Of a stretch of 64,000 nucleotides of DNA, positions 36,152-36,504 are shown in pieces. Location of the stretch: contig JAETRU010000006.1 of the NCBI GenBank assembly GCA_021769965.1, positions 1 through 64,000 of the forward strand, given 5' to 3'. Within the stretch, counting starts at the first letter, position 1. Each line of letters begins with the position of its first letter. The stretch is from Eubacterium sp. Its GTDB lineage: Bacteria; Bacillota; Clostridia; Peptostreptococcales; Anaerovoracaceae. Under the pieces are notes generated by a model. That model saw nothing but the letters and a program-made list of their open reading frames with translations. It was not told the origin of the DNA and did not search any database. Made by a program: the position numbers and the translations under genes.

Positions 36152-36504
36152 TTAGGTCAAAATGCTTTTTCGAGGGGTCAAAGACCTAATTCTCGTGGCT
36201 CCGGCAGCGAAATGTTAGGTCAAAATGCCTTCTCGAGATGCCAAAAACCCAATTCTTGTGGCTCCGGCAGCGAAATGTTAGGTCAAAATCCCCTTTCGAG
36301 GGGTCAAAAACCTAATTCTCGTGGCTCCGGCAGCGAAATGTTAGGTCAAAATGCCTTCTCGAGGTGCCAAAAACCTAATTCTCGTGGCTCCGGCAGCGAA
36401 ATGTCAGGTCAAAATCCCCTTTCGAGGTGCCAAAAACTTAATTTCTATGGCTCCGGCAGCGAAATGTTAGGTCAAAACACCCTTTCAAAGGGTCAAAAAC
36501 TTAA
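36152..36504 (-). repeat. Helically phased palindrome array 3 (six 38-bp TTAGGT-N26-ACCTAA modules, exact 63-bp period)
   Basis: Module starts 36152, 36215, 36278, 36341, 36404, 36467; constant 25-bp linker containing GGCTCCGGCAGCGAAATG. Confidence 0.95.

What the first reader, a model, noticed from the sequence alone, without database searches (positions are those of the whole stretch)
36152..36504. Third array with covarying boxes TTAGGT...ACCTAA and a perfect 63-bp period
Six 38-bp modules TTAGGT-N26-ACCTAA repeat every 63 bp without a single indel. Box substitutions relative to arrays 1/2 occur in both arms (TTGGGC/GCCCAA to TTAGGT/ACCTAA), a compensatory pattern that implies symmetric recognition or pairing. 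The reverse complement has the same polarity signature (AATTAGGTTTTTG ... TTTTGACCTAA versus AGTTGGGCTTTTTG ... TTTAGCCCAA). Modules alternate between two cores (TGCCTTCTCGAGRTGCC and CCCCTTTCGAGGGGTC types), while the 25-bp linker GGCTCCGGCAGCGAAATG is nearly invariant.
Basis: seen in the sequence. Interest (0 to 1): 0.82.

Follow-up and report, generated by a model that had tools for sequence, protein, structure and literature searches.

The report
Helically phased box arrays between genes
This stretch is one of dozens of short DNA arrays scattered between genes of one bacterium, whose matching six-base "boxes" sit a whole number of DNA helix turns apart, which suggests that unknown proteins bind along one side of the DNA and bend or wrap it; five or six box families share this layout, and no earlier description was found.

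Summary
The array is real: six 38-bp modules every 63 bp at 36152-36504, no indel. Only three of the six have both exact arms. It is one of six "beta" arrays found in the half of the genome sampled. The genome also holds four to five other families with different boxes but the same plan: alpha TTGGGC (37 bp, period 53), gamma TTGAGC (37/63), delta GTTTCG (39/63), epsilon TTCGGC (period 62), probably zeta GTTTCT.

Arm changes are mostly one-sided (alpha 32 vs 7, beta 14 vs 2); one beta array has mismatched arms in all four modules.

The stronger signal is helical. Alpha linkers are 15-16, 26, 36, 44-46, 56-57 bp; non-modal spacings in three families fit 10.5 bp (Rayleigh p about 6e-7); A/T tracts outside the boxes peak at 10.5 bp in all four families tested. 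Arrays lie between unrelated genes, enriched between convergent ones.

Best reading: duplex-DNA platforms for sequence-specific dimeric proteins that line up on one face and bend or wrap the DNA, dispersed like BIMEs. The protein and its benefit are not identified. Pure mobile-repeat status is the main rival.

The parts
36152..36189 (.). beta module 1 (TTAGGT...ACCTAA, 38 bp)
36190..36214 (.). linker 1, 25 bp; linkers 2-5 at 36253-36277, 36316-36340, 36379-36403, 36442-36466
36215..36252 (.). beta module 2 (TTAGGT...ACCCAA; one-sided arm change)
36278..36315 (.). beta module 3 (TTAGGT...ACCTAA)
36341..36378 (.). beta module 4 (TTAGGT...ACCTAA)
36404..36441 (.). beta module 5 (TCAGGT...ACTTAA; both arms changed, at different positions)
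36467..36504 (.). beta module 6 (TTAGGT...ACTTAA; one-sided arm change); overlaps the stop of the 36501-37205 (-) ORF
2684..2972 (.). alpha array (TTGGGC...GCCCAA, five 37-bp modules, linkers 16,36,36,16)
5902..6190 (.). alpha array, partly degenerate (five modules, linkers 16,36,36,16)

Best explanation
The feature is a duplex-DNA binding platform. Each module is a site for a dimer of a sequence-specific DNA-binding protein that reads the two inverted boxes about three helix turns apart. A/T tracts every 10.5 bp present narrow minor grooves on the same face. Successive dimers sit an integral number of turns apart, so the proteins line up on one face and bend or wrap 230-370 bp into a compact nucleoprotein structure. 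Different families (alpha to epsilon) would be read by different proteins or by paralogues of one architecture. The arrays are spread between genes and mostly leave promoters clear, so the likeliest role is architectural (a loop anchor, boundary or supercoil sink behind genes) rather than control of one pathway. Shown: arrays, families, phasing, A/T periodicity, placement, absence of the same boxes from congeners. Inferred: protein binding, wrapping, role.
For: Alpha linkers 15-16, 26, 36, 44-46, 56-57 bp. 24 non-modal module spacings in alpha, gamma and delta (mainly 42, 53, 63, 73, 83, 94, 105, 127) give R=0.77 at 10.5 bp, p about 6e-7. A/T power with boxes masked peaks at 10.5 bp: alpha 13.6, beta 19.0, gamma 17.3, delta 10.2, against a shuffle maximum of 1.7-3.9. 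Arm changes are one-sided. Boxes and inner A/T tracts are conserved between loci while cores and linkers differ. Flanking genes are unrelated: PFK, DnaE, SmpB, citF-citC, FTHFS, iPGM, FeoB. Convergent enrichment 8/31 vs 26/369 array-free gaps of 150 bp or more, p=0.002. Wedge-model curvature exceeds shuffles and other intergenic DNA in most alpha, beta and gamma arrays.
Against: No binding protein was identified. LytTR counts do not track the arrays, and congener G008, which has a similar array, has no serine recombinase. The same boxes are absent from congeners, odd for a basic architectural role. Beta and gamma arrays are mostly tandem duplications, so their 63-bp period alone is weak evidence; the case rests on the variable spacings, which are not all independent. 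Predicted curvature is absent in epsilon and weak in delta. Alpha arrays fold better than box-preserving shuffles as RNA.
Confidence: 0.5

Rival explanations
1. Dispersed selfish repeats of the BIME/NIME/BOX/REPIN kind: tandem arrays spread by a recombinase or transposase acting on the boxes, with no benefit to the host; helical phasing reflects the enzyme's synaptic complex.
For: Intergenic, none inside genes, enriched between convergent genes, unrelated neighbours; BOX/RUP/SPRITE show the same convergent bias (PMC3049150). Several families per genome, boxes not shared with congeners. One empty orthologous site in congener G008.
Against: Cores and linkers of arrays of one family at different loci are unrelated, unlike copies of a mobile unit. 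No fixed ends or unit number. Only one Y1 transposase, 156 aa, in the genome. G008 has an array but no serine recombinase.
Confidence: 0.28
2. RNA elements: co-transcribed hairpin arrays acting in 3' regions (termination, mRNA protection, protein binding).
For: Self-complementary arms; position often just after stop codons; alpha arrays fold below box-preserving shuffles.
Against: Arms change one-sidedly without rescue; stems of 6-10 bp close 17-27-nt loops; 10.5-bp quantised linkers have no RNA meaning; beta fold z-scores are near zero in several arrays; no Rfam match; array polarity is not fixed relative to the gene.
Confidence: 0.1
3. Operator arrays of ordinary transcription factors controlling the neighbouring genes (a regulon per box).
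For: Helically phased half-sites are usual for cooperative regulators (general knowledge); some arrays lie upstream of genes.
Against: Neighbours are functionally unrelated, one gamma array lies between citF and the citrate lyase ligase gene, divergent gaps are not enriched and convergent ones are.
Confidence: 0.08
4. The beta array is an iron-regulator (DtxR-type) operator of the feo genes, since TTAGGT resembles a DtxR half-site.
For: It lies about 130 bp upstream of the feo genes.
Against: Other beta arrays lie by unrelated genes; a separate TTAG/CTAA-type inverted box sits at the feo promoter here and similar ones at feo in congeners that lack the array.
Confidence: 0.02

Closest known systems
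BIMEs / REP-REPIN elements with RAYT transposases (enterobacteria, pseudomonads)
   Same: Dispersed intergenic composite palindromic repeats, several flavours per genome, ordered tandem clusters (PMC3116915).
   Different: REP cores are compact hairpins tied to RAYT genes; here 6-bp arms are 25-27 bp apart, helically phased, and no RAYT set was found.
Pneumococcal BOX elements and neisserial NIMEs
   Same: Modular intergenic arrays, BOX with variable numbers of central units; BOX enriched between convergent genes (PMC3049150).
   Different: BOX units share one consensus and a predicted RNA fold; here several unrelated box sets share only geometry and 10.5-bp phase.
Dispersed chromosome-organising sites (MatP/matS, Noc sites, RacA sites, Rok clusters), from general knowledge
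   Same: Tens of protein sites scattered between unrelated genes.
   Different: Those are single or loosely clustered sites for one conserved protein; here 2-8-module phased arrays in several box families.
Resolvase res sites (Tn3/gamma-delta), from general knowledge
   Same: Inverted outer boxes with inner A/T tracts, dimer sites an integral number of turns apart.
   Different: res sites have three subsites beside a recombinase gene; box sequences differ, and G008, which has a similar array, has no serine recombinase.

Membership tests
REP/REPIN-BIME | associated RAYT (Y1 tyrosine transposase) gene for each flavour | tested here: not met
   One Y1_Tnp match, 156 aa frame, in the genome; at least five box families
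REP/REPIN-BIME | dispersed, extragenic, palindromic, many copies | tested here: met
   33 arrays of two or more modules in 1.52 Mb, none inside genes
MITE | copies at different loci share their interior sequence and ends | tested here: not met
   Only boxes and inner A/T tracts are shared between loci
CRISPR array | identical repeats separated by unique spacers | tested here: not met
   Linkers repeat and cores vary; no unique spacers
CRISPR array | adjacent cas genes | tested here: inconclusive
   None among the flanking genes annotated; no genome-wide cas search was run
Type III toxin-antitoxin RNA repeat | tandem repeat directly upstream of a toxin gene | tested here: not met
   Annotated neighbours are FeoB, PFK, DnaE, SmpB and other unrelated genes
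Known structured RNA | match to an Rfam family | tested here: not met
   Only a tRNA at 4781-4860
Helically phased protein-binding array | spacings at integral helix turns | tested here: met
Helically phased protein-binding array | a protein binds the boxes | not testable with these tools
   No candidate identified

The most novel reading that the evidence does not exclude
A new class of bacterial chromosome-organising element: several co-existing families of dispersed, one-face-phased box arrays, each read by its own member of a diversifying wrapping-protein family, with boxes replaced between species while the geometry is kept.
Probability: 0.25. Interest if true: 0.85.

Novelty: new variant of a known kind. 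Interest (0 to 1): 0.62.

Why it matters
Dispersed intergenic repeats in bacteria are usually explained as RNA hairpins or transposition debris. Arrays whose only shared rule across unrelated box sets is helical phase suggest a DNA-architectural function that can be tested with simple footprinting, gel-shift and phase-insertion experiments, and they offer a handle on an unidentified DNA-wrapping protein family.

Tried and rejected
Array as coding repeat: no homologue of the 148-aa frame. Phage or plasmid origin: no match in phages, plasmids or viral contigs beyond one single-module hit. Spread in other species: an alpha-type pattern scan of genomes of 85,488 species gave only isolated single matches, and may leave out records very near the window. 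Y1 transposase, LytTR and serine recombinase as the partner: none tracks the arrays. RNA hairpin as the main form. DtxR-type iron operator. Literature searches found no description.

Full report
Observation. The array at 36152-36504 is present as described: six 38-bp modules and five 25-bp linkers, exact 63-bp period. Only modules 1, 3 and 4 have both exact arms; modules 2, 5 and 6 have changed arms. Two further arrays in the window (2684-2972, 5902-6190) have TTGGGC...GCCCAA boxes, 37-bp modules and mostly 53-bp or 73-bp spacing.

The array is one of many. The window lies in a 2.99-Mb, 82-contig genome. A pattern for both box types found 72 matches per strand against 32 for the reversed pattern; demanding a third box gave 39 and 45 against 0. 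A de novo scan for six-mers clustered with their reverse complements found more families: gamma TTGAGC (37-bp modules, period 63), delta GTTTCG (39 bp, 63-64), epsilon TTCGGC (period 62, extra direct half-site 12 bp away), and probably zeta GTTTCT (four half-sites spaced 21, 8, 21). A Markov control gave one cluster of six half-sites and none larger. Gamma has 69 modules in this genome, delta 36; the delta pattern is absent from twelve congeners and gamma has one isolated match in them. A strict alpha/beta pattern is absent from the congeners too. In samples of three congeners, G008 has a TTCGACA/TGTCGAA array with period 51-54 and a zeta-like array, and G009 a zeta-like one; a zeta pattern occurs in 4 of 201 genomes of the family. 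So boxes differ between species while a similar layout recurs at least in G008.

Pairing versus symmetric recognition. Reading both arms of 65 alpha and 28 beta modules, one-sided changes outnumber two-sided complementary ones 32 to 7 and 14 to 2; the two-sided excess is weak in alpha (P=0.026; 0.066 when shuffled within arrays) and absent in beta (P=0.52). Array L149 carries TTAAGT/ACCTAA in all four modules. Pairing within a module is therefore not required; symmetric recognition by a dimer remains.

Helical phasing. Linkers between alpha modules are 15-16, 26, 36, 44-46, 56 and 57 bp (the 44 comes from one doubtful outer module). Gamma and delta also show non-modal spacings (42, 53, 105; 74, 127), with exceptions at 48 and 66. 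The 24 non-modal spacings align best at 10.5-10.6 bp (R=0.77, p about 6e-7, independence not complete). With boxes masked, A/T content peaks at 10.5 bp in alpha, beta, gamma and delta at 10-19 times the shuffle mean; epsilon peaks at 10.25 with boxes included. In beta and gamma the 63-bp tandem period makes 10.5 one of a few possible harmonics, so alpha, with variable linkers, is the strongest case. Alpha arrays usually reverse module polarity across a longer central linker. A wedge model (parameters from memory) predicts more curvature than shuffles in 23 of 28 arrays, clear in most alpha, beta and gamma arrays, absent in epsilon.

Placement. Of 33 arrays none lies within a gene; 20 are between tandem, 8 convergent and 3 divergent genes, 2 at contig ends. 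Convergent gaps are enriched (p=0.002 against array-free gaps of 150 bp or more, 0.047 against gaps of 30 bp or more). In tandem pairs arrays lie nearer the upstream stop (median 86 bp) than the downstream start (134 bp), p=0.04. Genes were called by a simple codon-usage script, so single cases may be wrong. Neighbours share no function. One orthologous gap in G008 lacks the epsilon array and is about 290 bp shorter.

Interpretation. Together these point to duplex DNA read from one face by dimers, bent or wrapped. The conserved boxes with diverged cores suggest selection on the boxes. Whether this serves the host or a recombinase that spreads arrays is open. No partner protein was found: Y1 transposase, LytTR and serine recombinase counts do not fit.

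Novelty. Literature searches did not find this element (open-access papers only). In genome distribution it resembles an interspersed mosaic element, but it fails the RAYT and MITE tests and differs by a helical phase shared across unrelated boxes. I file it as a new variant, with a smaller chance of a new class.

Noticed in passing
window 2684-2972 and 5902-6190: Two alpha arrays with 36-bp central linkers; genome-wide, most alpha arrays reverse module polarity across the centre, giving a palindromic overall plan.
   Followed up: partly
L171:12754, L172:8828, L179:5520, L084:17897, L107:1054: Zeta family GTTTCT-21-GTTTCT-8-AGAAAC-21-AGAAAC, present in this genome and in two congeners.
   Followed up: partly
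L136:3387-3514: Cluster of GCAAATAGGA...TCCTATTTGC-like hairpins at about 20-bp spacing, a different type of repeat.
   Followed up: no
window 36050-36080: Inverted GTTAGTT..AACTAAC-like box at the feo promoter, with similar TTAG/CTAA boxes at feo in congeners: a likely metal-regulator operator unrelated to the array.
   Followed up: partly
window 36501-43824 (-): Run of alternating membrane proteins and WG-repeat-like proteins, apparently an expanded tandem gene family.
   Followed up: no
L046:107, L049:174, G000:C7:136, G000:C25:96693: Several arrays lie within a few hundred bases of contig ends, so arrays may break the assembly and be undercounted.
   Followed up: no
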